This document shows, piece after piece, positions 1 through 12,052 of a DNA stretch of 12,423 nt; the stretch's first letter is position 1; every line of letters starts with the position of its first letter. Both the position numbers and the translations under genes were made by a program. The notes under the pieces are model-generated. The model worked only from the letters and a program-made list of their open reading frames with translations. It ran no database searches and was not told where the DNA came from. Source of the DNA: an uncultured Emergencia sp. (GTDB taxonomy: Bacteria > Bacillota > Clostridia > Peptostreptococcales > Anaerovoracaceae); assembly GCA_902476665.1 (NCBI GenBank), contig CABSEO010000020.1, forward strand, positions 1-12,423. Reading direction: 5' to 3'.

Positions 1-708
1 CCGTTTTGTACTAAGTGCAGCAACAGCCACGGCCATTTTTTCCATAGCTGTACTGCTATGCTTCATAGAGCCGTGTCCGCCTTCCCCTCTGGCTGTAATC
101 TTGATTTCAGCCACCTGTTTTTCGGCAATCTGAATAGGATAAAACTTTTTTCCTGCGACATTGATAGAAAAACCTCCGATTTCTCCAATGGCATAATGGA
201 ACTCAGAAAACAGCTCCGCATGATTCTCCACGAGATATTTCATTCCGAAATCTGAAGAGCCTTCTTCATCACTGACTGCCAGATAGCATACATCAAAGGG
301 CAGTCTGACCTTTTCTTCTGCAAGGTGAAGTAAGGCGGAAAGAAACATTCCATGTTCACCCTTCATATCAATGGCCCCCCGTCCAAACAGATAGCCATCT
401 TCAATCATACCTGAAAAAGGATCTTTTTCCCACTTCTGCTCCTTTACCGAAACCACATCCACGTGTCCATACATTAAAAAAGGTGGGATTTCTATTCCAT
501 CTGACTGCAGCTTTGCCGGATATCTTGCAAACAGATTGGGCCGTCTCTCATCGCGCCAGATGAGTTGCGTCTCAATTCCTGCTCTGTCCAGTAAGTCTTT
601 TATAAACAGAATACATGACCGCTCCTGATCTTCTCCGTTGACAGTGTGAAAGCGAATCAGCTGCTGTGCAATAGAAACCGCATCATGTTCTAAATTCTCT
701 ATCCTCAT
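1..708 (-). CDS. M20-family metallopeptidase / N-acyl amino acid hydrolase-like protein, partial (C-terminus off window)
   Basis: The frame is open from an ATG at 708-706 to the left edge, giving the first 236 residues of a protein whose family is usually 400-500 residues long. The start has an AGGAGG site 8 nt upstream. Visible M20 di-zinc signatures are YGHVDVV (His82 and Asp84), GRGAIDMKG with Asp114 as the bridging metal ligand, DEEG with Glu148/Glu149 as catalytic base and ligand, and GEGGHGS (His212) opening the dimerisation lid domain. The W-x-x-DPFSG-x-I-x-DGY-x-FGRGA spacing is typical of the ArgE/DapE/CPG2/carboxypeptidase-S/PM20D1 branch, whose members cut peptides or N-acyl amino acids in the cytoplasm. 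No signal peptide is visible. It lies downstream of hpdA, but a terminator (780-826) and a possible own promoter separate them, so a shared role with the decarboxylase is only conjecture. The exact substrate cannot be read from this part. Confidence 0.88.
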   Translation of the reverse strand, partial: MRIENLEHDAVSIAQQLIRFHTVNGEDQERSCILFIKDLLDRAGIETQLIWRDERRPNLFARYPAKLQSDGIEIPPFLMYGHVDVVSVKEQKWEKDPFSGMIEDGYLFGRGAIDMKGEHGMFLSALLHLAEEKVRLPFDVCYLAVSDEEGSSDFGMKYLVENHAELFSEFHYAIGEIGGFSINVAGKKFYPIQIAEKQVAEIKITARGEGGHGSMKHSSTAMEKMAVAVAALSTKR

Positions 709-907: not shown

Positions 908-1846
908 CTAAAAAGATGTACGGTGACCTACATAGCAGGCAATTCCCGCATCCAGGTATAAAGCCTGAAGAGATTCCATGGCTTCATCTGTCATCTCGCC
1001 GCCTGTAGCATAGGCATATTCTTTGCCAAGCTGCTCCCACTTGGTTTGCCCCAGACGATGGAATTTTAACAGGTTAATCTCATAAAGCCCGTTTTTCTCC
1101 ATAAAGGCGATCACCTCTTTTGCGTTCTGCTCACTGTCATTGTAGCCGCTGATTGTTGGCTGACGCAGCACAAGACGGCCACTCCATCCGCTTTCTTTCA
1201 GCGCCCGTATATTTTCCAGAATCTGTTCGTTTCCTACGCCGGTTCCAGCTTTATGAGCATCTGTATTCATGTGCTTAATATCAACAAAAGCAAAATCGAT
1301 ATACCGCATCACATTGAGAAATCTTTCCGTAGAGAAACAGGCACTGGTTTCAATTGCGGTATGAATTCCCATTCTGCGGCAGCCCCTCAAGACCTCCTTC
1401 AAAAAATCATCCTGCATAATGGGATCTCCACCACTGAAAGTAACGCCGCCGTTTTTGCCCCAGTTGCTGAAATCCCTTTTCAGAATCTGCAGCAGTTCTT
1501 CAGCAGTATATTCTTTTACGCACTGCTTCAGAGCACGATTAGGGCAGATTGATACGCAAGAAAATTCTATACAGTTTCCGCATTTTTCAAAATCCACCCG
1601 AGGTGGCTGATTTTCCTCAATAATAATAGCACGGTCAGGACATACGTCTGCACAGACATTGCATCCCTTTTCCCATTTGCAGGACGCCTTGGCAAACATG
1701 ATATGCTTGCCAGGGATCCAGCTTTCCGGATTGGCACACCAGACACACTTTAGCGGACATCCTGATAAAAATACTGTGGTTCGGCATCCAGGACCATCAT
1801 GTACGGAAAACGACTGAATATCAAAGATTTTTCCGGTTGCAGTCAT
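908..1846 (-). CDS. hpdA: 4-hydroxyphenylacetate decarboxylase activating enzyme (radical SAM)
   Basis: This 312-residue protein is a glycyl radical enzyme activase. It uses S-adenosylmethionine and a [4Fe-4S] cluster to take a hydrogen atom from the radical glycine of HpdB. The radical-SAM motif CPLKCVWC gives Cys30, Cys34 and Cys37. An inserted ferredoxin-like domain follows with two four-cysteine sets (Cys56/62/65/69 and Cys89/92/97/101), as in activases of HPAD, glycerol dehydratase and benzylsuccinate synthase. The SGGD stretch near 138-141 is the GGE-like SAM-binding element, here with Asp instead of Glu. The length matches the clostridial HpdA proteins (about 316). Its ATG lies 5 nt after the hpdC stop and the ribosome site GAAAGG overlaps the end of hpdC, so the two are translationally close. 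It is the last gene of the operon. Assignment to HPAD rests on operon position and partner genes, because activases alone do not reveal their target. Confidence 0.92.
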   Translation of the reverse strand: MTATGKIFDIQSFSVHDGPGCRTTVFLSGCPLKCVWCANPESWIPGKHIMFAKASCKWEKGCNVCADVCPDRAIIIEENQPPRVDFEKCGNCIEFSCVSICPNRALKQCVKEYTAEELLQILKRDFSNWGKNGGVTFSGGDPIMQDDFLKEVLRGCRRMGIHTAIETSACFSTERFLNVMRYIDFAFVDIKHMNTDAHKAGTGVGNEQILENIRALKESGWSGRLVLRQPTISGYNDSEQNAKEVIAFMEKNGLYEINLLKFHRLGQTKWEQLGKEYAYATGGEMTDEAMESLQALYLDAGIACYVGHRTSF

Positions 1847-1851
1847 AATCG

Positions 1852-2118
1852 TTACCTTTCGATCGCCTTATAATGCTCACAGCAGAAAGCGCCGCAGTTG
1901 GCATAAGACCAGTTCTCTTTCTCAAAACCGGTACAGGTACCTATACCATAAGAATCTGCACCGGAAAAGCAGGCACAGTTGCCGCAGACCGGAGACGCTT
2001 TAAACTGACTGCATGCTTCACTTCCACTGCCGTCAATTGGAACAACCTGCTTGGACAAAGCACACATTCCTTTTTCACAGTCTAAACTGATATAGTTTAT
2101 GCATTCTACATGTCTCAT
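1852..2118 (-). CDS. hpdC: 4-hydroxyphenylacetate decarboxylase small (gamma) subunit, two Fe-S clusters
   Basis: This 88-residue cysteine-rich protein is the small subunit found with 4-hydroxyphenylacetate decarboxylase (85 residues in Clostridioides difficile, from memory). The residues I recall as ligands in the Clostridium scatologenes structure are all present at the same numbers: His3/Cys6/Cys19/Cys36 for one [4Fe-4S] cluster and Cys45/Cys48/Cys62/Cys80 for the other. The conserved stretch GIGTCTGFEKENW (58-70) matches the clostridial GIGKCVGLEKEDW. The family is related to HiPIP-like folds and is needed for the hetero-octameric active enzyme and its regulation. Three further cysteines (14, 50, 75) and Cys79 are not in the ligand set. 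A GGAGG site lies 10 nt before the ATG, and the gene starts 18 nt after the hpdB stop. Its presence separates this system from indoleacetate and phenylacetate decarboxylases, which are described without such a subunit. Confidence 0.95.
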   Translation of the reverse strand: MRHVECINYISLDCEKGMCALSKQVVPIDGSGSEACSQFKASPVCGNCACFSGADSYGIGTCTGFEKENWSYANCGAFCCEHYKAIER

Positions 2119-2136
2119 TGTTTTTATACCTCCAAC

Positions 2137-4842
2137 TTATGCTTCGTCATATTCTGTACGATAGATAACTTCATCCTGAATCGGCTTGCCGATCTCACAC
2201 CAGTACTGCGTAAATCCGGCTACACGCACCATCAGATCACGGTACCGATCAGGAGACTTCTGTGCGTCTTTCAATGTATCAGAGCTGACCACGTTAAACT
2301 GAACGTGGAATCCTCCCTTGCGCATATAAGTACGGACAAGCTCCAGAAGTTTCTTTGTACCCTGTACCCCCTGTACTGCAGAAGGATGCAGTTTCAGGTT
2401 CATCTGGGCATTCTGATTCTGAGAGTGATCATAAACCGTTGCAGATTCAAAGAGTGCGTAAACGCCGTTTTTATCCGTGCCGGCCGCAGCTGAAACTGAT
2501 CCGTCAGAGTAAGTCGTACCCGCTAAACGTCCATCTGCAGTTGCCAGTGTAATAAAGCCCTGCGGTCCATGAGTAGACACAGAAATCTGACACAGATATT
2601 CCGGTTTGCCAAAGAAAGACTCAATCGTAGGCAGATAATGGAGCAGATACATATGGTAATCACGTAACAGGCTGTCCGCATAGGGATCTGCGTTGCCGTA
2701 CTTAGGCGCATTGACACAGTCAGCAAAAATAGCCGCATATTTCTGTGCTTCATCAGTGCTCTCACGATAATCCGGTGAATATACTCCTGTGTCATATGCA
2801 GTACGGAACCCGAAGTTGTGCAGCATAGCATCTGTCATTTCCTCCAGAGAGTATTTTCCTGTATCATACACATTTTTCTTGATTGAAGCCAGAGAATTGA
2901 TAAAAGTGATGGTGCCGCAGGACTCAAAGTTGATACAGCCGTTATAACGGGAACCGCAGTTGCCGATATGCTGTCCTTTTTTGAAGCAGTCCGGCTTAAG
3001 CAGGGAGTTGACTGCCGGCATGTTATACTTACGCCATACATCCATCTGAATATTATTGACCTTGTTAACAATACGGTTGCTGATATCCAGATACTTCTTC
3101 CACTGATCAAGAAGTTCATCAAAGGTGTCAAGTGTCCGGTTGTGAGGTGGGAATACCTGCTTGCCGGTACGCTTATCCAGACCGTTGGTCAATACAAGTT
3201 CCAGCACCTTAGGCAATCCTGTGAAATGAATACCAGTACCACAGGTCGGAGAAGCACCGCCTGGAATCATGGTTACCTTGCCGTTATATTCCAAAGGCAG
3301 GAAACAACCCGGTGCAGACTCAAGACATCCGCCCAGACACCATGCCCGTGCATCATAAAGATCCATTCCTTCCGGACCATACTGGCGAAGCATGAAATTC
3401 ATGCCGACCTGATTATTCATCCATGCCGGATAACCCATGCCCAGTTTTGTACAGGCAGCAGCTTTCATTAAAAAGTCTTCCGGCATTTTTTCATCATATA
3501 GAACAGACAAGGTCGGCTGCGGTGTCTGCGCGCGCATACCCGCTTCCACAATCAGATACTCCAGAGGAGTTACTGCAGAAAGGCCATCATAATTCTGACC
3601 ACCCAAAGACAGATTGTTGAATGTGTTACCCGACAGAACCCCACCGGAAACGCCAGCTGAAGCAAAACACTCAATACAGGTGATTTTAATACGATACAGT
3701 TCCAGCAGTTCGATCACTTCCTCCTCGGTTGTGGTTCCATCTTCGATATCTTTTTCATAGAACGGCTGCAGCCCCTGCCCCAGACGGCCAATAGACTGAC
3801 CGGATTGAGGATCCTCGTTAACCACACCAAGATGCAGACATAAAGTCAGCTGCAGTGCCTCACGGAATGTGGAAGGCCGTTTGTGAGCAATATTATGCAT
3901 AACCTGGGCGATTTCCAGATAATTTTTTTTGTACTTCTCATCACTTTCACGTGAAGCCAGATCTTCTGCTTTACGCGCATAGTTTTCACACCACTGACTT
4001 AAACCTTTTACAATTTCCTTCATTGCAACATAGTAATAACCACGGCTCATACCCAGTACACCGTCACCACCTGCTTCACCCATAGTCTCTGCGATTTTCT
4101 GATCACATAGCTTCAAAATACCATCGAATCCGTACTGCAGAGGCATATAGTAATTCATAACTTCACGGCCCTGTGGGATAGCAAAAGAGTCGAACATAAC
4201 CAGCACACTGTCCATGACATTTTTAAACTGTTCATAGTCAGGAAGTGTTTTGGCATATTTAGTAGAAATGTCTTCAACGGAAATACCGTCCCAGTACTTG
4301 GAAACCTTCACCAGTACCGGAATATCTTCTTTTCTCATGCCGAATTTTTTTGCAATAGAAATAATTTCGCCATAGCTTTCAGTGACATTTCCACCGCCTG
4401 CACCTACTACAGAAACTGAATCCGCCTCATTTTCAGCTGGAGCATCTACCTCTTCCATAAGAGATTCTGCCAGTGAGTTAAAAAAGCTTGCACATACCCA
4501 TGGGAATGGGAAAGCACCTCGAAGATGCTTTGTCTTATTCATGACCAGCTTTTCATAGGGAAGAATTGTAGGAGTGCTGTGTGCCAGAGAAGCCGCTACA
4601 GCCTTAGCCCTGCGAACCTCCAGCAAATCTCCGTCATTTTCCCACCATACCTGGTTATACCAATACGCACTTTCCATATCGGCAGTAACCTTCAAAATAT
4701 AATAAATATCCATGATACGCCGGAAACTTTCAGCAGCTTCCGGAATATCCTGCTCCTGAACTTCTTTCATCTGCTCATCTGTAATTCCTCTCTGTGTGAG
4801 GATTTCCTGCAATTTTTGCTCATTCGTCTGCAAGTGATTCAA
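2137..4842 (-). CDS. hpdB: 4-hydroxyphenylacetate decarboxylase catalytic subunit (glycyl radical enzyme, forms p-cresol)
   Basis: This 901-residue protein decarboxylates 4-hydroxyphenylacetate to p-cresol and CO2 in the last step of a tyrosine fermentation branch. The PFL-like barrel spans most of the protein and the glycyl radical loop is near the C-terminus (RVAGF, Gly876). Thiyl Cys506 lies in GGCLESAPG, with Glu508 two residues on. Relative to the C. scatologenes enzyme (Cys503, Glu505, His536, Glu637, Gly873, from memory) every residue is found shifted by exactly three: Cys506, Glu508, His539, Glu640, Gly876. Glu637 contacts the substrate phenol group, so its retention favours the hydroxylated substrate over phenylacetate or indoleacetate. 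Family length is 897-902. The chosen start is TTG (4842-4840), preceded by AGAAAGG with a short 4 nt spacer; the next Met is residue 25 and the family N-terminus supports TTG. First gene of hpdBCA, divergent from a CRP-like regulator. Confidence 0.96.
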   Translation of the reverse strand: MNHLQTNEQKLQEILTQRGITDEQMKEVQEQDIPEAAESFRRIMDIYYILKVTADMESAYWYNQVWWENDGDLLEVRRAKAVAASLAHSTPTILPYEKLVMNKTKHLRGAFPFPWVCASFFNSLAESLMEEVDAPAENEADSVSVVGAGGGNVTESYGEIISIAKKFGMRKEDIPVLVKVSKYWDGISVEDISTKYAKTLPDYEQFKNVMDSVLVMFDSFAIPQGREVMNYYMPLQYGFDGILKLCDQKIAETMGEAGGDGVLGMSRGYYYVAMKEIVKGLSQWCENYARKAEDLASRESDEKYKKNYLEIAQVMHNIAHKRPSTFREALQLTLCLHLGVVNEDPQSGQSIGRLGQGLQPFYEKDIEDGTTTEEEVIELLELYRIKITCIECFASAGVSGGVLSGNTFNNLSLGGQNYDGLSAVTPLEYLIVEAGMRAQTPQPTLSVLYDEKMPEDFLMKAAACTKLGMGYPAWMNNQVGMNFMLRQYGPEGMDLYDARAWCLGGCLESAPGCFLPLEYNGKVTMIPGGASPTCGTGIHFTGLPKVLELVLTNGLDKRTGKQVFPPHNRTLDTFDELLDQWKKYLDISNRIVNKVNNIQMDVWRKYNMPAVNSLLKPDCFKKGQHIGNCGSRYNGCINFESCGTITFINSLASIKKNVYDTGKYSLEEMTDAMLHNFGFRTAYDTGVYSPDYRESTDEAQKYAAIFADCVNAPKYGNADPYADSLLRDYHMYLLHYLPTIESFFGKPEYLCQISVSTHGPQGFITLATADGRLAGTTYSDGSVSAAAGTDKNGVYALFESATVYDHSQNQNAQMNLKLHPSAVQGVQGTKKLLELVRTYMRKGGFHVQFNVVSSDTLKDAQKSPDRYRDLMVRVAGFTQYWCEIGKPIQDEVIYRTEYDEA

Positions 4843-4971: not shown

Positions 4972-5652
4972 ATGGATACAACACAAAAGATACTGGATGC
5001 CTTTATGGCTGATTCAGAAATCTACCCACTAATCCGTCGTTTTTATGAAGAAAAACAGATCCCCGTCAGGCGTACTGAAGCTGAAATCTGCATTTCCGAT
5101 GCCGCTGATCACGGGTACCAGATCATTTATCTGCTACACGGCACAGTAAGAGCCGTTTGTCTCTCTCCTCGGGGACGTAGAATTCTGCTGGACGAAATCG
5201 GTGCCGGAGAATTCACCGGTCATATCAGCAGACTCAGGGGTTATAGTTTTAATTCCAGTCTGATTGCCAGAACAGACTGTGTTTATCTTTCTTTCCCTGA
5301 CAAAGTATTTCTTGAGCTGATGAAGGATCCTGACTTTGCGCTGCAGTTCTATCAAAGCACCAGCACCCGAACCTATTACATGTTCCAGAAATTTCTTTCC
5401 CTGACCCTGTTTTCCACCGAGGAAAATACCGCCATGTACTTTCTTGTTCATGAAAAATGCCTGCAGCAGAGTACACTGGATACCATCAGCGAAGAAGTAG
5501 GAATCAGTCGGCGCAGTCTCTACTATATCTTAAAAAAGTGGCAAAAAGAGGGGATTCTTACAAAGAAAGGACCATGTTATCTTCTGGCAGACAAGGATGC
5601 ACTTCTGTCCCTGACGGAGCATATTCGCTTATTCTATCATGAACCGTTTTAG
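4972..5652 (+). CDS. CRP/FNR-family transcriptional regulator, divergent from hpdBCA
   Basis: The protein is 226 residues from an ATG with a GAAAGGA site 8 nt upstream. The frame is open further upstream, but that part overlaps hpdB and has no start signal. Residues about 30-115 form a cyclic-nucleotide-binding-like beta barrel (GYQIIYLLHGTVRAV, then GRRILLDEIGAGEFTG). A dimerisation helix lies at about 118-145, and a C-terminal winged helix at about 165-205 has the recognition segment GISRRSLYYILKKW. The cAMP-contact R-S/T-A motif is not apparent and there is no N-terminal cysteine cluster of the FNR type, so the effector is probably neither cAMP nor an iron-sulfur cluster. Divergent placement over a shared palindrome suggests it controls hpdBCA and itself. 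By analogy with CprK, a CRP/FNR protein that senses chlorinated hydroxyphenylacetate, 4-hydroxyphenylacetate is a plausible effector, but that is inference. No clear plus-strand terminator was seen after the stop. Confidence 0.9.
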   Translation: MDTTQKILDAFMADSEIYPLIRRFYEEKQIPVRRTEAEICISDAADHGYQIIYLLHGTVRAVCLSPRGRRILLDEIGAGEFTGHISRLRGYSFNSSLIARTDCVYLSFPDKVFLELMKDPDFALQFYQSTSTRTYYMFQKFLSLTLFSTEENTAMYFLVHEKCLQQSTLDTISEEVGISRRSLYYILKKWQKEGILTKKGPCYLLADKDALLSLTEHIRLFYHEPF

Positions 5653-5825: not shown

Positions 5826-6977
5826 TCAGTTCCCTTTAAAATCAGCTTTCATATTTATAATTCTGATTTCATCACAGAATATTTTTACTGCAGTAAGACC
5901 AATCAGCCTTGCGCCCTCTGCAATTGCCTGATGTGCTCTGTCCGATTTCACGGCATCCGCAAACTCTCTTGTGTGTATCGGTGCCTCATCAACAATCTGC
6001 AGACAAGGATGAAGTACAGGGCAGACATAGCTTACATTACCGATATCTGAGGATCCAAACACCGCATCTTTTGGTGCGTTCTCACGAATTTCAAGTTCTT
6101 TGAAAACTTCACGAACTGCAGTTTCACAAGTATCGTTTCTTCTCAAGTCCACATAATACAGCTGTTCCCGTGGATATTTTGTATATTCTGTCTGTGTTGC
6201 GACTGCTGCACCTTCAGCACAGTGATCCACCATGCTCACTAATTCTTCCATATGTTTTTTGTTTTCAGCCCTGATGAACAGCTGGAGAACCGTTTTTTCA
6301 GCAGCCATGGAGCGAGAAAGTCCTCCGGCCTTTATAATATAGTGGAATTGAGCATCTTTCTTTGTATGCTGGCGAAGCATGTCAACTGCATGAATCATCA
6401 TTCTCACACCATCCAGTGCATACTGCTCGTGAGCAGATTCTCCATGAAACTCATAGAAAAATTCACCTAATGACTGAAACTTGGGCATTACCAGATTACG
6501 ATGATAATAATGTACCATAATCGCAAGATCATAACCATCAAAAACACCCTGCTCCGCCATCTGGCATTTGGCGCCATCATCTTCTTCATCCGGGGTTCCG
6601 ACAATATGAAAATCCACATCCATCTCGTCCTGAAAATCTTTCATTACAAGACCAGCCATAATACCGGCTGCAGCACTGAGACAATGCCCGCAGGCATGTC
6701 CCAGCTCCGGAAGCGCATCATACTCTGTCAATAATGCAACTTTATACTTATGATTATTTTTACCATACACAGCTCTAAATGCAGTTTCTCGTCCTGCAAA
6801 AGGATATTCAGTCTGATATCCTTTCGTCTTCAGAAAATCAACCAGTTTCTTTGAAGTTTCAAACTCTTGTCCGGAAAGCTCCGGGTGATCAGCAATATCA
6901 TCGCTAATCTCTGCAAGATCTGGAAGCAGACGTTCAGTTTCAGCAAAAATTCTATCTTTCAGCACTTCATAATTCAT
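5826..6977 (-). CDS. M20D amidohydrolase, AbgB-like
   Basis: This 383-residue protein is a cytoplasmic di-metal amidohydrolase of peptidase subfamily M20D, the group with p-aminobenzoyl-glutamate hydrolase subunit AbgB, hippurate hydrolase and plant IAA-amino acid hydrolases. The metal site is visible: Cys96 and His98 in GHACGH, Glu131/Glu132 in GTPDEED (base and ligand), His156, and a C-terminal His335 in APIHTREF. The lid domain lies at about 165-290. The segment SSDIGNVSYVCP (309-320) followed by PIHT closely resembles the AbgB pattern. Departures from the usual consensus are Cys99 after GHACGH (normally Asp or Asn) and Asp130 in place of Ala. It should cut an amide between an acyl group and an amino acid; the substrate is unknown. 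The ATG follows the transporter stop by 16 nt, with a GAGGA site. It is the last gene of the operon, which suggests it processes what the transporter brings in. Confidence 0.88.
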   Translation of the reverse strand: MNYEVLKDRIFAETERLLPDLAEISDDIADHPELSGQEFETSKKLVDFLKTKGYQTEYPFAGRETAFRAVYGKNNHKYKVALLTEYDALPELGHACGHCLSAAAGIMAGLVMKDFQDEMDVDFHIVGTPDEEDDGAKCQMAEQGVFDGYDLAIMVHYYHRNLVMPKFQSLGEFFYEFHGESAHEQYALDGVRMMIHAVDMLRQHTKKDAQFHYIIKAGGLSRSMAAEKTVLQLFIRAENKKHMEELVSMVDHCAEGAAVATQTEYTKYPREQLYYVDLRRNDTCETAVREVFKELEIRENAPKDAVFGSSDIGNVSYVCPVLHPCLQIVDEAPIHTREFADAVKSDRAHQAIAEGARLIGLTAVKIFCDEIRIINMKADFKGN

Positions 6978-6993: not shown

Positions 6994-8400
6994 TTATGCT
7001 AGCATGAAACCCGCAATCACATAACCCACGAAAGAAATTGCCGTAACGATACCGATATACGGAAGCTGTGCAACTGCATAGTCTACATTATTGATACGGC
7101 AGGCTGAAGCGGACATCAGTGTTACATCAGAATAGAAACATGCCTGCGCACCAAAGCATGCGGCTGAAATAATGGCTCCCAGTGTAAGCGGAATATTAGC
7201 TCCTGTAGATGCAGCAAGCGGCAGAATAATCGGTGTACAAAGTGCCGGTACACTCCAGATATTGCCGGTGGCAAAACATACCAGTCCTATCAGAACAAAG
7301 GAAATCGCCGGAATCCATGCGGCACTCATGTAAGGTCCTGCTGCATCAATCAGGAAATCAGGCAGGCCGATTAGATTGATTGCTTCTCTGTAGAATAAGG
7401 AAGTCACCAGTACCACTGCAATAAACAGCATATCTTCAAGTCCTTTATAGCAGGCATCACAGAATTTCCCCAGACTCATAATTCTGGTTGGGATAAACAG
7501 AATAAAGCATACGAAGATACCAATACTTACTCCATAAAGAATATCGTCCAAAATCAAGGTTGCTGCAATCACTACAGCCATCGGCACAACGAAAGTCCAA
7601 AGATGAGGGGTAATTTCTCTTTCTTCTTCCTGACTTGCAACGGCCCCCATTACTTCCCCCAGTTCATTTCCCTGATTCTGTGCATTACTGGTCTCCGGCC
7701 AGAGCTGTCCGGTTTCCGCTACTCTCTGATACGCTTTTTTGATGCCTCCCATTTTAGGAACAACACCTAATATGACTAGCAGAACAAAGATTACACAGAG
7801 GAAAGGATAGAAGAAATACGGCATGATGTGATAGTAAATGTCCATTGCATTGTCTCCCACTACAGCGGTTTCAGGCTGCTGTTCAAAAACACCGGAGAAA
7901 AACACAACCCAAGCTGAAATAGGAATAATCAGACATACCGGTGCAGAAGTTGTGTTAATAATGTAACAGAGCATTTCTCTCGGTGTCTTATGCTCATCAG
8001 ACAGAGTCAGTACGCAGTTTGCTGTAACAAGAATGCTGAGATAATCGTCAATAAAGATGATAATTCCGCATAACCAGGTTAAAAACAGAACCTGCTTCTC
8101 AGACTTTACATACTTTCTTGCCAGATCGCCCACAGCTACCGCTCCTTTTGATTCTCTGAGCAGCTGTACAAAACATCCAAACAGTAGACAGATAATGACG
8201 ATGTAGTTATTATCGCTGTCACAGGACGCATCAAGTAATGCATCCATCATCGGCATAAAAAATCCAGCTTTATAATATAAAATATACCCTAATAATCCCG
8301 ATACCATAATACTTAAAATACACTTCTTTGTAAGAAAAGCCAGTGCAAAGAAACTCACCACGGGAATCAGGGTGAGAACTCCTAAATTAGTTCCATCCAT
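6994..8400 (-). CDS. NhaC-family membrane transporter
   Basis: This 468-residue polytopic membrane protein has about 11-12 hydrophobic segments and a hydrophilic cytoplasmic-type loop at about 217-265. Family marks are IFIDDYLSIL (115-124), the conserved Asp-Asp of NhaC antiporters, and a C-terminal SDVTLMS ... YAVAQLPY (424-448), matching the NhaC SDTTILS ... TQLPY pattern. The family includes Na+/H+ antiporters but also organic-solute carriers such as the malate/lactate antiporter MleN and a methionine transporter. In a catabolic operon, solute uptake is therefore the better guess. An AAGGAG site precedes two adjacent start codons, GTG at 8403 and ATG at 8400; the ATG has the better 8 nt spacing and was chosen. 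The gene lies 31 nt after the activase stop. Together with the amidohydrolase it suggests import of an amide-linked or amino-acid-like substrate, but no substrate can be read from the sequence. Confidence 0.88.
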   Translation of the reverse strand: MDGTNLGVLTLIPVVSFFALAFLTKKCILSIMVSGLLGYILYYKAGFFMPMMDALLDASCDSDNNYIVIICLLFGCFVQLLRESKGAVAVGDLARKYVKSEKQVLFLTWLCGIIIFIDDYLSILVTANCVLTLSDEHKTPREMLCYIINTTSAPVCLIIPISAWVVFFSGVFEQQPETAVVGDNAMDIYYHIMPYFFYPFLCVIFVLLVILGVVPKMGGIKKAYQRVAETGQLWPETSNAQNQGNELGEVMGAVASQEEEREITPHLWTFVVPMAVVIAATLILDDILYGVSIGIFVCFILFIPTRIMSLGKFCDACYKGLEDMLFIAVVLVTSLFYREAINLIGLPDFLIDAAGPYMSAAWIPAISFVLIGLVCFATGNIWSVPALCTPIILPLAASTGANIPLTLGAIISAACFGAQACFYSDVTLMSASACRINNVDYAVAQLPYIGIVTAISFVGYVIAGFMLA

Positions 8401-8431
8401 CACAATTTCTCCTTTTTAGTTCAACATTTTG

Positions 8432-9367
8432 CTATACTCTTCCCAAAATCCCTACCTCTAAACCTATTTCATCTCTAAAGTAACTTTCCAGTTCTGCCAG
8501 TCGTTCTTCTGTCGGCGGCTGAAATGCTTCCTGCACTCCGCCCACATTTCGTTTCTTACTGATTCCGAGATTGTGGTACGGCAGAAGATTTACCCTTTTG
8601 ATACCAATTTCACGATAGAATTGTCCGGTTCTCACAATAATGTCCTCAGTATCATTGACATTTCTTATCAATGGCATACGCATAGTTATTTTGTCAGCGA
8701 GGTTTTTGTCTGATATCAGCATTCTTAAGTTCTCAAGAATTTTCTGATTGCTGACGCCGGTATACTTTTTATGTATCTCATCATCGACAGATTTCATATC
8801 ATACAGAATATCCGTGACATTTTCTTTTTGTGCCAGCTTCTTCAGTGCTTTATCGTCACCATAACCGGAAGGGTCCAGACATACATTGATCTCCCGCCGG
8901 CCAGCCTCATCGATAAGACGGTTTACGAAGACGGCATGCATCAGTATTTCTCCTCCGCTAATTGTAATGCCGCCGGCGGTATGATCATAAAACCCTTTGT
9001 CCTGTTGTGCAGCACCAAGTATCTCTTCCACTGTCATCAGTTTCGCCACCGGCCTGAGGGCCCTGGCATAACATTCATCAGCGCATTTCAGACACACACT
9101 GCAAAGCTTTCGGTCAACACTGATTCCTTTCCCCTCAGTAACAGAGATAGCCCCATGTGGACATACTTCTAAACAGTGACCGCATCCGATGCAATTGTTC
9201 GGCGACTGAATCAGCTGCTGACGTGAATCAATCAGTTCCGGATTATGACACCATCTGCAGTTTAAAGGACAGCCCTTCAAAAATATGGTTGTACGGATAC
9301 CGGGGCCGTCCTCAACAGAAAATTTCTGAATGCTGCCGACCAGAACACGTTCAGATATATTACTCAT
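8432..9367 (-). CDS. Glycyl radical enzyme activating protein (radical SAM)
   Basis: This 311-residue activase should install the glycyl radical on the GRE encoded just upstream. The radical-SAM motif CPLNCRWC gives Cys33, Cys37 and Cys40. A ferredoxin-like insert carries two regular four-cysteine sets (Cys59/62/65/69 and Cys89/92/95/99). TISGGE (135-140) is the SAM amino-group binding element, and MRMPLIRNVND near 229-239 is the later barrel strand conserved among activases. It differs clearly from HpdA: the cluster spacing is more regular and SGGE replaces SGGD, as expected for a different partner. The ATG lies 12 nt after the GRE stop and is preceded by a G-rich site (GGGGGC) rather than a classic AGGAGG. 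Pairing with the 793-residue GRE rests on adjacency and shared strand. Confidence 0.93.
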   Translation of the reverse strand: MSNISERVLVGSIQKFSVEDGPGIRTTIFLKGCPLNCRWCHNPELIDSRQQLIQSPNNCIGCGHCLEVCPHGAISVTEGKGISVDRKLCSVCLKCADECYARALRPVAKLMTVEEILGAAQQDKGFYDHTAGGITISGGEILMHAVFVNRLIDEAGRREINVCLDPSGYGDDKALKKLAQKENVTDILYDMKSVDDEIHKKYTGVSNQKILENLRMLISDKNLADKITMRMPLIRNVNDTEDIIVRTGQFYREIGIKRVNLLPYHNLGISKKRNVGGVQEAFQPPTEERLAELESYFRDEIGLEVGILGRV

Positions 9368-9379
9368 CAGAAGCCCCCG

Positions 9380-11761
9380 TTACCTGTCCTGCGACAGATG
9401 TGCGGTACGATAAATAATGGTATCCTGTGCACTTTTGTCCAATTCAGTAAAATATGCCATATATCCTGCAACACGCACCATCAGCCCTTTATAATTTTCC
9501 GGCTGTTTCTGAGCCTTTTTCAGGGTTTCATTATCTACAACATTGATCTGAATATGCTGACCGCCATCTTCAAAGTATGTCTTAATCACACCCTCAAGAG
9601 TTTCCAGTCCTTTTTCACCCTGGATTCCTTTCGGATCAAAACGTAAATTATAAAGTGCCCCTTCGTGCAGTTTTTCGTCCACCATGCTGGCTACAGATTT
9701 GACTGTGGCAGTAGGTCCATGAACATCTCTGCCCATCATCGGAGAAGATGCATCACAGAATGGTTCGCCTGCCAGCCTTCCATCAGGAAGTGCACCAGTT
9801 ACAGCACCGTGAGGAATATTCATGGTCTGAGAATCAATTCCAAAAGCATAGTATCCGCCTCTGGCATCATGCCACTCCTGTACATTTTCAGCAATAAAAT
9901 CCATCATCTCTTTATAGACTGCGTCTACATGTGCCTGATTATTTCCGTATTTTTCAGGTTTGTTTAAAAGCAGCTGTCTCAGTCTCTCCTGTCCTTCAAA
10001 ATTTGAATCACAAGCCTTGATTAATTCGTCCATGGTTACATCTTTATCTTCGAAAACACACTTTTCCACAGCAACGATGGAGTCTGCCAGATTTGCAGGT
10101 CCTGTCACATAAAGACCACAAGTAGAATATTTTGCGCCGCCATGCTGAACAGATTTTCCGCTTTCCACACAGCCTTTTGTAACCATAGATGCAAAGATTA
10201 CCGGATACCGGTTCATATGAATGCTCTGCATCAGATTATAACCGGTTCTGATCAGGCTGTAATGATGCAGAATCTGTTTTTTTAAGGCATCCTTGAATTC
10301 TTCGATATTATTAAACTCTCTCGGGTCACCAGTCTGAAGTCCCATCAATTTCCCTGTAGCCGGGTCTATGCCATTATGCAGTACAAATTCAATCATCTTT
10401 CCCATATTGACATAACCTGCATCCGGAGAACCGTCTGCACCTCCGCCTCCCGGCGCCGGCTGGGTGCATCCCACGATTGCCCAGTCTCTTGCTTCTTCAA
10501 TGGTGCTGCCTCTGCCTTTCTCAAGACAAATTCCGATCGCTGCATCATCACTGAAGAATCCCGGATTTGCCTGACCTTCCTGAATCATTCTGCAGCCAAA
10601 TCGAATCAGCTTCTCAGGCGTGTTCTCCCAGACTCTGACTGCCATAACAGGCTGTTTTACCTGAAGCTCATCTGCTGCTTTCAATGCCAGATAGGACAAT
10701 TCATTTGTTGCATCTTTTCCATCTGGTGTCTGACCGCCCACCATCAGAATCTGCCACATAGGATATCCCGCAAAGGCCGTGGCGTACCAGTTGTCTCTTA
10801 CCTCATACACTTCACAGGTCTTCAGATACAGACACTCGATCAGTTCCAAAGCTTCCTGCTCTGTAATATTCTTTTCATCCAGCACATCCTTTTTATAAAA
10901 TGGCCACATATACTGGTCAAACCTGCCGAATCCACAGGCGGTAGTACATACTTCAATATAAAAATATACATGTACAAACCAGATTGCCTGCAGTGCCTGA
11001 TAGAAAGTCTGCGGCGGATTTTCCGGAACCACTCTGCAATTTTGCGCAATTAACAGAAGTTCCTGTTTTCTCTTTTCATCAGAGCAGTTCGCCGCCTGCC
11101 TTTCGGCCTCTTCAGCCATTCTATGTGCGTAAGTTATCAGTCCTTCACACTGAATGATGCAGGCTTTCCAGAAGTCCACCTTTGCCTGCTCCTCCATAGT
11201 CTGTGGAATCAGACTGTCAATATTTTTCTGGCATTCATCCATATAGCCTCTGAGACCGATGGTCAGAATCTTTTCATGATCGCAGGTAGTTTCTCCAGAA
11301 ACGCCATTTTCGAGACCGACGCAGATGATATCATCTTTTTCCAGTTCCTTGATCTTAGAAGGCATTGCAGTTTCTGAAATGTCCTCCATGGATTTTCCTT
11401 CCCAGTATTTCAGCGTCTCCAGAATTGTTTTCTTATCCTCAGGAGATATGTAATATGGGTCTTTACTTCTCGTGGAAAAATCATCAATATCACTGATATA
11501 CCATGAGCTTGACTGAAATTCCGGATGCAGATTTGCACCTCTGTACGCATTGGTGGCTGTACCTACAATGAGTTCATCATCCATGATCAATGTAGTCATA
11601 TGCTCCATAATATAATTCACTACTTTTGCTCTGAAAATAGGAATCGACTCACCTGCAAATTTCTGATATGCTTCTGTAGCGAGAACCAGTCTTTCAGCAG
11701 TAATCTGAGGAATCGTATCGAAATACTTTTCCTTCATCCTTTTCACTCTCGGTGTTAACAT
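9380..11761 (-). CDS. Glycyl radical enzyme of unassigned specificity (PFL-like superfamily)
   Basis: The protein is 793 residues from ATG 11761, which has AAGGAGG 5 nt upstream. An in-frame ATG ten codons earlier lacks such a site and was rejected. The PFL-like domain spans about 5-625 and the glycyl radical domain about 655-780, with radical Gly766 in MVRVAGY. Thiyl Cys432 lies in AIVGCTQPAPGGGG. Length and positions match the dehydratase-like branch (trans-4-hydroxyproline dehydratase HypD has Cys434 and Gly765, from memory). However, the Glu two residues after the Cys in diol dehydratases, CutC, HypD and HPAD is Gln434, and the GH segment that supplies a catalytic His in many of these reads GET (156-158). 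It is not pyruvate formate-lyase, which has CC. It keeps DGRLAGEP and the CVESGKSVQHGGAKY segment common to the superfamily. First gene of an operon with activase, NhaC-type carrier and AbgB-like hydrolase. The GRE family is certain; the reaction is unknown. Confidence 0.93.
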   Translation of the reverse strand: MLTPRVKRMKEKYFDTIPQITAERLVLATEAYQKFAGESIPIFRAKVVNYIMEHMTTLIMDDELIVGTATNAYRGANLHPEFQSSSWYISDIDDFSTRSKDPYYISPEDKKTILETLKYWEGKSMEDISETAMPSKIKELEKDDIICVGLENGVSGETTCDHEKILTIGLRGYMDECQKNIDSLIPQTMEEQAKVDFWKACIIQCEGLITYAHRMAEEAERQAANCSDEKRKQELLLIAQNCRVVPENPPQTFYQALQAIWFVHVYFYIEVCTTACGFGRFDQYMWPFYKKDVLDEKNITEQEALELIECLYLKTCEVYEVRDNWYATAFAGYPMWQILMVGGQTPDGKDATNELSYLALKAADELQVKQPVMAVRVWENTPEKLIRFGCRMIQEGQANPGFFSDDAAIGICLEKGRGSTIEEARDWAIVGCTQPAPGGGGADGSPDAGYVNMGKMIEFVLHNGIDPATGKLMGLQTGDPREFNNIEEFKDALKKQILHHYSLIRTGYNLMQSIHMNRYPVIFASMVTKGCVESGKSVQHGGAKYSTCGLYVTGPANLADSIVAVEKCVFEDKDVTMDELIKACDSNFEGQERLRQLLLNKPEKYGNNQAHVDAVYKEMMDFIAENVQEWHDARGGYYAFGIDSQTMNIPHGAVTGALPDGRLAGEPFCDASSPMMGRDVHGPTATVKSVASMVDEKLHEGALYNLRFDPKGIQGEKGLETLEGVIKTYFEDGGQHIQINVVDNETLKKAQKQPENYKGLMVRVAGYMAYFTELDKSAQDTIIYRTAHLSQDR

Positions 11762-11788
11762 AATATCCTCCTTCCGTGTATTTCTATA

Positions 11789-12001: not shown

Positions 12002-12052
12002 CTTCGCATATATATGACCACAAATCCGTTTCGATGCAAGGAGGCGTACAGA

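What the first reader, a model, noticed from the sequence alone, without database searches (positions are those of the whole stretch)
9380..11761. Glycyl radical enzyme with Gln in place of the usual Glu near the thiyl Cys, and no GH histidine
The enzyme has both radical residues (Cys432, Gly766), but the motif is GCTQP instead of GCVEP/GCVET/GCLE, and the region that reads GH in many dehydratase-type members reads GET. In diol dehydratases, CutC, HypD and HPAD the Glu acts in proton transfer. Its loss suggests a reaction that does not need that base, such as a different elimination, a C-C cleavage or an addition. The glycine-rich PAPGGGGADG stretch after the Cys (435-444) would also shape the pocket differently. 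I cannot match this to a characterised GRE class.
Basis: partly seen in the sequence, partly recalled or inferred. Interest (0 to 1): 0.8.

Follow-up and report, generated by a model that had tools for sequence, protein, structure and literature searches.

The report
Gut radical enzyme with swapped base
This gut-bacterial gene makes an oxygen-sensitive radical enzyme whose usual catalytic acid is replaced while another acid appears beside it in the pocket, so it may break down an amine or amino acid differently from its studied relatives.

Summary
The minus-strand gene at 9380-11761 encodes a 793-residue glycyl radical enzyme (GRE) with Cys432, Gly766 and GCTQP. [quoted passage not shown] Q434 is present in 320 of 320 aligned sequences (the window's included), down to about 54% identity, and those placed in trees form one well-supported clade. 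The best solved match is HplG at 36% identity.

The inference that the base is lost is only partly right. The neighbouring pocket position that is His in HypD (His160, bonded to the CXE Glu) and glycerol dehydratase is Glu here (E157, 319 of 320). The Glu/His pair became Gln/Glu on one branch of the tree; the nearest outgroup row still has Glu/His. A carboxylate is therefore offered from a shifted position.

Residue 643 splits the clade. D643 (the window's type) goes with a private NhaC-like transporter (13 of 13) and no reductase (0 of 9). H643 or L643 goes with a nearby reductase (31 of 39) and sometimes a LysP-like permease (11 of 44). Best reading: an eliminase for an amine or amino-acid substrate, positively charged for the window's type. 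5-Hydroxylysine is a speculative lead. New variant of a known kind; function unproven.

The parts
9380..11761 (-). Glycyl radical enzyme, 793 aa, CXQ clade, type D643
10466..10468 (-). codon of C432 (thiyl cysteine)
   Evidence: 320/320
10460..10462 (-). codon of Q434, in place of the CXE Glu
   Evidence: 320/320
11291..11293 (-). codon of E157, at the position of HypD His160 / glycerol dehydratase GH His
   Evidence: 319/320
10421..10423 (-). codon of D447, aligned with an Asp of glycerol dehydratase
   Evidence: 320/320
11309..11311 (-). codon of E151, subtype position
9833..9835 (-). codon of D643, subtype position that tracks gene context
9464..9466 (-). codon of G766 (glycyl radical)
11767..11773 (-). 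AAGGAGG ribosome-binding site
   Evidence: read from the sequence
8432..9367 (-). GRE-activating enzyme (radical SAM with ferredoxin-like 4Fe-4S part), 311 aa, 12 bases after the GRE stop
   Evidence: TIGR02494 286 bits, cut-off 174; an activating-enzyme match directly downstream in 61 of 68 evaluable loci
6994..8403 (-). NhaC-superfamily transporter, 469 aa, found with D643-type GREs
   Evidence: PF03553 68 bits; 13/13 D-type (window included), 0/34 H-type, 0/10 L-type loci
5826..6977 (-). M20 peptidase/amidohydrolase, 383 aa; nearest solved relatives HmrA (160 bits) and Xaa-Arg dipeptidase (113 bits)
   Evidence: 63% identical partner in L073, none found beside the GRE of L001
12014..12421 (+). 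divergent regulator, N-terminal cupin/AraC-binding part, cut by the window end; by its first residues a relative of the ~620-aa AraC-type regulators beside other members
   Evidence: for the window piece; for the relatives; the likeness was read by eye against L010

Best explanation
The operon GRE, activating enzyme, NhaC-like transporter, M20 hydrolase encodes a degradation step for an amine-bearing substrate that the transporter imports and the M20 enzyme may release from a dipeptide or N-acyl form. The activating enzyme puts a radical on G766 and C432 becomes the thiyl that takes a hydrogen atom from the substrate (established for the family). The GRE then eliminates a heteroatom group (NH3 or water), leaving a carbonyl. 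In place of the usual CXE Glu (assisted by His), Q434 would hold the substrate's hydroxyl or leaving group by a hydrogen bond, and E157, at the position of the assisting His, would be the proton acceptor, perhaps with D447. Shown here: the swap, its conservation, its appearance on one branch of the tree, the operon, and the link of residue 643 to context. Inferred: that E157 is the base, that it is an eliminase, that the substrate is an amine or amino acid, and that the window's type takes a cationic one (E151 and D643 against T/R151 and H/L643 in the types with reductases). Candidate substrate, low confidence (about 0.1): 5-hydroxylysine or a related hydroxylated basic amino acid or diamine.
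For: One clade, support 100/99, whose nearest outgroup row L184 is H157/E434. E157 319/320; Q434, D447, T274, Y450 320/320. The HypD row used for mapping has the paper's letters at the named sites: E436->Q434, H160->E157. E->Q inactive in HypD and IslA. Nearest solved structures are eliminases, HplG first (36% id, TM 0.96). Amino-acid hints: an amino-acid permease next to GRE-AE in deep members and others, scoring 503-560 bits to NCBIfam PRK10836 (that this is the LysP model is recalled; cut-off 735) against 417-456 for the next model, 5 proteins; best solved match of the one tested is a lysine-specific permease; window M20 nearest HmrA and Xaa-Arg dipeptidase; a NhaC/ArcD-like (367 and 324 bits, cut-offs 370 and 650) and a YfcC-like (281, cut-off 500) transporter near some members; outgroup L184 beside a peptide-type ABC ATPase and two M20s; sister-clade L182 beside a GlmL-family protein and a ProC-like one. 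D643 versus context.
Against: No biochemical data. L079's second GRE has Ala at 157 with Gln kept, and the sister clade L089/L099 has Q434 with His157, so Gln does not require E157. The amino-acid evidence comes mostly from the H643/L643/M643 types; the window's own transporter is an orphan NhaC relative with no PDB match, and M20 stands beside D-type GREs only in the window and L073 (1 of 9, where the window lacked flank; H-type 6 of 31, L-type 0 of 8). The permeases stay under the curated cut-off. SDRs and permeases are common genes and I ran no random-gene background; the D-type loci (0 of 9, 0 of 13) are the only contrast. The reductase partner is missing in the window's type.
Confidence: 0.42

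Rival explanations
1. Eliminase in which E157 is structural or binds the substrate cation, and the base is D447, the substrate's own amine, or water; Q434 only positions the hydroxyl.
For: D447 is 320/320 and aligned with an Asp of glycerol dehydratase. In CutC rows the 157 position is Asp, next to the trimethylammonium group (recalled). One member (L079 second GRE) lacks E157, and L089/L099 have Gln with His.
Against: E157 is otherwise invariant and appears on the same branch as Q434, from a Glu/His outgroup row.
Confidence: 0.25
2. A non-eliminase GRE reaction (decarboxylation, C-C cleavage, addition, or an aminomutase-like rearrangement) that needs no base at the Cys loop.
For: The 4 PFL rows lack the Glu (Ser); both members of the CXE/His pair are changed. 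The sister-clade locus L182 has a GlmL-family neighbour and a protein with a weak B12-binding match.
Against: Best matches are eliminases; scores to the two decarboxylase models are 335 and 461 against cut-offs 1150 and 1100. There is no room inside the operon for a small subunit of the HPAD or BSS kind (gaps of 12, 28 and 16 bases). 31 of 39 evaluable H/L-type loci have an SDR or AKR within 9 kb, fitting a carbonyl product.
Confidence: 0.17
3. A hydroxyproline-family enzyme (HypD- or HplG-like) with drifted motif.
For: HplG is the top structural match and HplG-like rows share the superclade; Y450, a HypD carboxylate ligand, is kept.
Against: 585 bits against the HypD cut-off 1100; HypD D278, S334, D339, F340 are T, F, M, W; 36% identity to HplG; E. 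timonensis holds both HplG-like (by motif) and CXQ GREs.
Confidence: 0.08
4. Inactive or regulatory paralogue.
For: E->Q mutants of HypD and IslA are inactive.
Against: Cys and Gly are kept down to about 54% identity and the activating enzyme stays beside it (61 of 68); tight operon; conserved subtypes.
Confidence: 0.04

Closest known systems
[quoted passage not shown]
   Same: Same fold, same superclade (by HplG-like rows), Tyr at 450 in two of the four such rows and Gln at 645 in all four, amino-acid substrate
   Different: 36% identity; HplG-like rows have Asn or Cys at 157 and Glu at 434; loop one residue shorter after the Cys
Glycerol / 1,2-propanediol dehydratases (1r8w, 5i2a, 9rco)
   Same: Fold, nearly equal bit scores, Asp aligned with D447
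   Different: 34-36% identity; GH His and CXE Glu, and His where this has T274
[quoted passage not shown]
   Same: Fold, Y450, amine-bearing substrate
   Different: E436->Q434, H160->E157, D278->T274, S334->F330, D339->M335, F340->W336, T645->Q645
CutC, choline TMA-lyase
   Same: An acidic residue (Asp) at the 157 position; C-N cleavage is a possible shared chemistry
   Different: Keeps CXE; 543 bits against cut-off 1050
GCVQP GREs of E. timonensis (L099/L182) and Bacilliculturomica (L089), no characterised match known to me
   Same: Gln at 434; same superclade
   Different: Keep the GH His; no GGGG loop; other gene partners

Membership tests
GRE superfamily (PF02901/PF01228) | both domains, thiyl Cys, RVAGY glycine, cognate radical-SAM activase | tested here: met
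GRE eliminases with CXE motif | Glu two residues after the thiyl Cys | tested here: not met
   Gln in 320/320
GRE eliminases with CXE motif | carbon-heteroatom elimination activity | not testable with these tools
   -
HypD (NF043068) | score over 1100 bits | tested here: not met
   585 bits
HypD (NF043068) | H160, D278, S334, D339, F340, E436, T645 | tested here: not met
   E, T, F, M, W, Q, Q
CutC (TIGR04394) | score over 1050 bits; Asp/Glu pair at 157/434 | tested here: not met
   543 bits; E/Q
HplG | groups with HplG-like rows in the tree | tested here: not met
   four HplG-like rows form their own clade, 100/100; called HplG-like by motif only (L110 and L107 close to 7vua, L108/L109 less so); 7vua itself was not in the tree
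Glycerol/propanediol dehydratase | GH His, CXE Glu, second His | tested here: not met
   E157, Q434, T274
HPAD / IAD decarboxylases | score over 1150 / 1100 bits | tested here: not met
   335 / 461 bits
LysP (NF008094/PRK10836; the LysP name is recalled), for the neighbour in other loci | score over 735 bits | tested here: not met
   503-560 bits in 5 proteins
Xaa-Arg dipeptidase (PM20D2 kind, recalled), for the window M20 | hydrolysis of dipeptides with a basic C-terminal residue | not testable with these tools
   only similarity: 113 bits, HmrA 160 bits

The most novel reading that the evidence does not exclude
A GRE class that has moved its acid-base machinery: the catalytic carboxylate sits at the position of the former helper His (E157) and the Cys loop offers only an amide. 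It would act on basic amino acids, diamines or similar amines, substrates for which I know of no GRE and saw none in my paper searches (open-licence papers, listings only), with at least two substrate types set by residues 151 and 641-643.
Probability: 0.25. Interest if true: 0.78.

Novelty: new variant of a known kind. Interest (0 to 1): 0.52.

Why it matters
The CXE Glu is described as the conserved base of most GRE eliminases (PMC7077986, passages), and E->Q kills HypD and IslA. A large natural clade that fixed Gln and gained a Glu where the helper His was gives a direct test of which part of the dyad is needed. It is common in gut bacteria: 22 of 119 sampled genomes of the E. timonensis family have a hit of 53% identity or more, so it may handle an abundant gut amine or amino acid not yet linked to this enzyme class.

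Tried and rejected
Basic amino acid for all types: weakened. The window's type has E151/D643, while the types found with LysP-like permeases have mostly R/T151 and H/L/M643, so the substrates probably differ in charge.

L013 as proof that a window-type GRE can use the LysP-like permease: rejected. It has E151 but NVH at 641-643 and its gene is split; it could be a recombinant or an assembly chimera.

Link to the neighbouring HPAD operon: no evidence beyond adjacency; HPAD has its own activase and small subunit.

LysP transporting hydroxylysine: PMC9288024 (passages) names LysP as a lysine importer; overexpressing it gave poor 3-hydroxylysine yield; no statement on hydroxylysine uptake was seen. 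Emergencia description PMC10213047 (term search): no occurrence of lysine, arginine, hydroxyproline or amino acid in the main text.

IslA alignment to place R189/Q193/R678: failed, IslA was not among the printed alignments. No coordinates of the AlphaFold model were found in /data, so no pocket distances.

Literature: ten searches, open-licence PMC only, several with more papers than listed (for example 30 of 70 and 40 of 168). No paper naming a CXQ GRE clade was seen in the listings. PMC11528403: passages and section 8. Subscription papers (for example the HplG paper, recalled) could not be checked. The trees kept the 157 and 434 columns in.

Full report
What is there. The window's minus strand holds a tight operon: GRE (11761-9380), activating enzyme (9367-8432), NhaC-family transporter (8403-6994) and an M20 hydrolase (6977-5826), with gaps of 12, 28 and 16 bases and a divergent cupin/AraC-type regulator starting at 12014. 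The GRE start has AAGGAGG five bases upstream.

How far the motif holds. A scan of one genome per species found 192 confirmed stretches, of which the best 80 were kept (55-97% identity; Emergencia, Hornefia, Aminicella, Anaerovorax, Bacilliculturomica, Oscillibacter, Slackia, Eubacterium minutum and many MAGs). The set is similarity-gathered and partly redundant. Of 46 other GRE rows, 37 have Glu, 4 Ser, 3 Val and 2 Gln at this position.

Where it sits. Two trees of rows that I picked (80 rows, quick; 36 rows, mixture model with bootstrap) put the PGGG-loop CXQ sequences in one clade (SH-aLRT 100; 100/99). Next come the GCVQP enzymes L089/L099 with His157 (92/92), then Glu/His enzymes and the HplG-like group, all in a 100/100 superclade. 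So, read from the tree, Q434 and E157 appeared on the same branch. Glu to Gln needs one base change, His to Glu at least two. Gln also occurs with His in L089/L099, so it arose twice or was reversed in L184. One outgroup row carries this argument.

What the swap means. In HypD, His160 lies 2.5 A from Glu436 of the CXE motif, and E436Q and H160Q both lacked activity (PMC7077986, passages). In IslA, E470Q still carried 11% glycyl radical but had no activity (PMC8473560, passages). CutC E491Q exists as a solved mutant (5fav); its inactivity is recalled. Mapping HypD numbering through a HypD row whose letters agree with the paper at the named sites puts E436 at Q434 and H160 at E157; the alignment to glycerol dehydratase gives the same pairing of His with E157. 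So the dyad Glu/His became Gln/Glu. The carboxylate is not lost but offered from the neighbouring position, and D447 is also invariant.

Function from neighbours. Position 643 separates the clade by context (denominators are loci with enough flank). D643 (19 loci with the window): the NhaC-like transporter in 13 of 13, an SDR or AKR in 0 of 9, LysP-like permease in 0 of 13. H643 (45): NhaC-like 0 of 34, SDR/AKR 24 of 31, LysP-like 8 of 34. L643 (12): NhaC-like 0 of 10, SDR/AKR 7 of 8, LysP-like 3 of 10. Five more of the 81 loci could not be used here: 3 with a gap at 643, frameshifted L076 (it has the NhaC-like gene), and the single M643 locus (L079, LysP-like beside it but too little flank). 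Reductases were counted within 9 kb; they lie directly upstream of the GRE in 24 of the 39 loci with a hit. No random-gene background was run. E. timonensis carries both a D643 and an H643 enzyme (L010, L029). The LysP-like permease scores 503-560 bits to NCBIfam PRK10836 (LysP by recall), under its cut-off of 735 but above the next amino-acid permease models (417-456), and the one tested has a lysine-specific permease as best solved match. It follows GRE-AE in deep members (L057, L059, L063, L079) and elsewhere. M20 genes follow GRE-AE in L028, L031, L032, L043 and the NhaC-like gene in the window and L073; the window's is nearest to HmrA and Xaa-Arg dipeptidase, 63% identical to L073's and 30-38% to the others in its cluster, and none was found beside the 97%-identical GRE of L001. 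Outgroup L184 lies beside a peptide-type ABC ATPase and two M20 peptidases. The sister-clade GRE of E. timonensis (L182) lies beside a GlmL-family protein (TIGR01319 353 bits, cut-off 204), a protein with a weak B12-binding match and a ProC-like protein (188 bits, cut-off 197). This points to amino acids or peptide-derived amines; none of it proves a substrate.

Reaction. Nearest solved enzymes are HplG, propanediol and glycerol dehydratases at 34-36% identity. That distance makes a separate function likely; PMC11528403 (section 8) treats 40-50% as below the level separating most functionally distinct GREs. I take an elimination giving a carbonyl as most likely, since most evaluable H/L-type loci add a reductase. 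For the window's type, the acid pair E151/D643 suggests a positively charged substrate and the product is not reduced by a neighbour. 5-Hydroxylysine is my best single guess at about 0.1.

Verdict. Real, conserved, not seen as characterised in the literature I could search (open-licence PMC, listings), and more informative than first stated because the partner residue changed with it. A new variant of a known kind.

Noticed in passing
window 908-4842: Complete 4-hydroxyphenylacetate decarboxylase operon (large subunit 1640 bits, small subunit, activase, all over NCBIfam cut-offs): predicted p-cresol formation.
   Followed up: partly
window 4975-5652 (+): CRP/FNR-family regulator (weakly YeiL-like, 50 bits of 180) between the two GRE operons, convergent with the M20 gene; an ORF of the same size stands in the same place in L001.
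   Followed up: no
window 1-708 (-): Second M20 peptidase (best NCBIfam PRK07906), cut by the window end.
   Followed up: no
Emergencia timonensis genome (G001): 15 PF02901 matches in one genome; six lie within about 60 kb (C8:1046942-1106013), of which two fetched ones are HplG-like by motif (L109, L110) and one is GCVQP (L099).
   Followed up: partly
L182:5660-13724 (G001:C8:1098000-1112000): GCVQP GRE with activase, a GlmL-family protein, a 583-aa protein with a weak C-terminal B12-binding match, an ORF that looks like a GntR regulator (by eye) and a ProC-like protein: possibly a GRE-plus-aminomutase amino-acid pathway.
   Followed up: partly
L069, L070, L071, L074: CXQ GRE and activase followed by a short ketol-acid-reductoisomerase-like protein (KARI_N plus KARI_C in L074) and, in three of the four, a relative of a DMSO-reductase-family molybdoenzyme (identified in L074).
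   Followed up: partly
L079:3395-8188: Two tandem CXQ GREs with one activase; the first has Ala at position 157, the only exception among 320.
   Followed up: partly
L013:9886-12255, L076:10001-12822, L178: CXQ GRE genes that are split, frameshifted or hold an in-frame stop; L013 mixes D-type and H-type features.
   Followed up: no
L100, L144, L145: A small GRE group with GCVVP in place of CXE and Glu at the GH position, near CutC in the tree.
   Followed up: no
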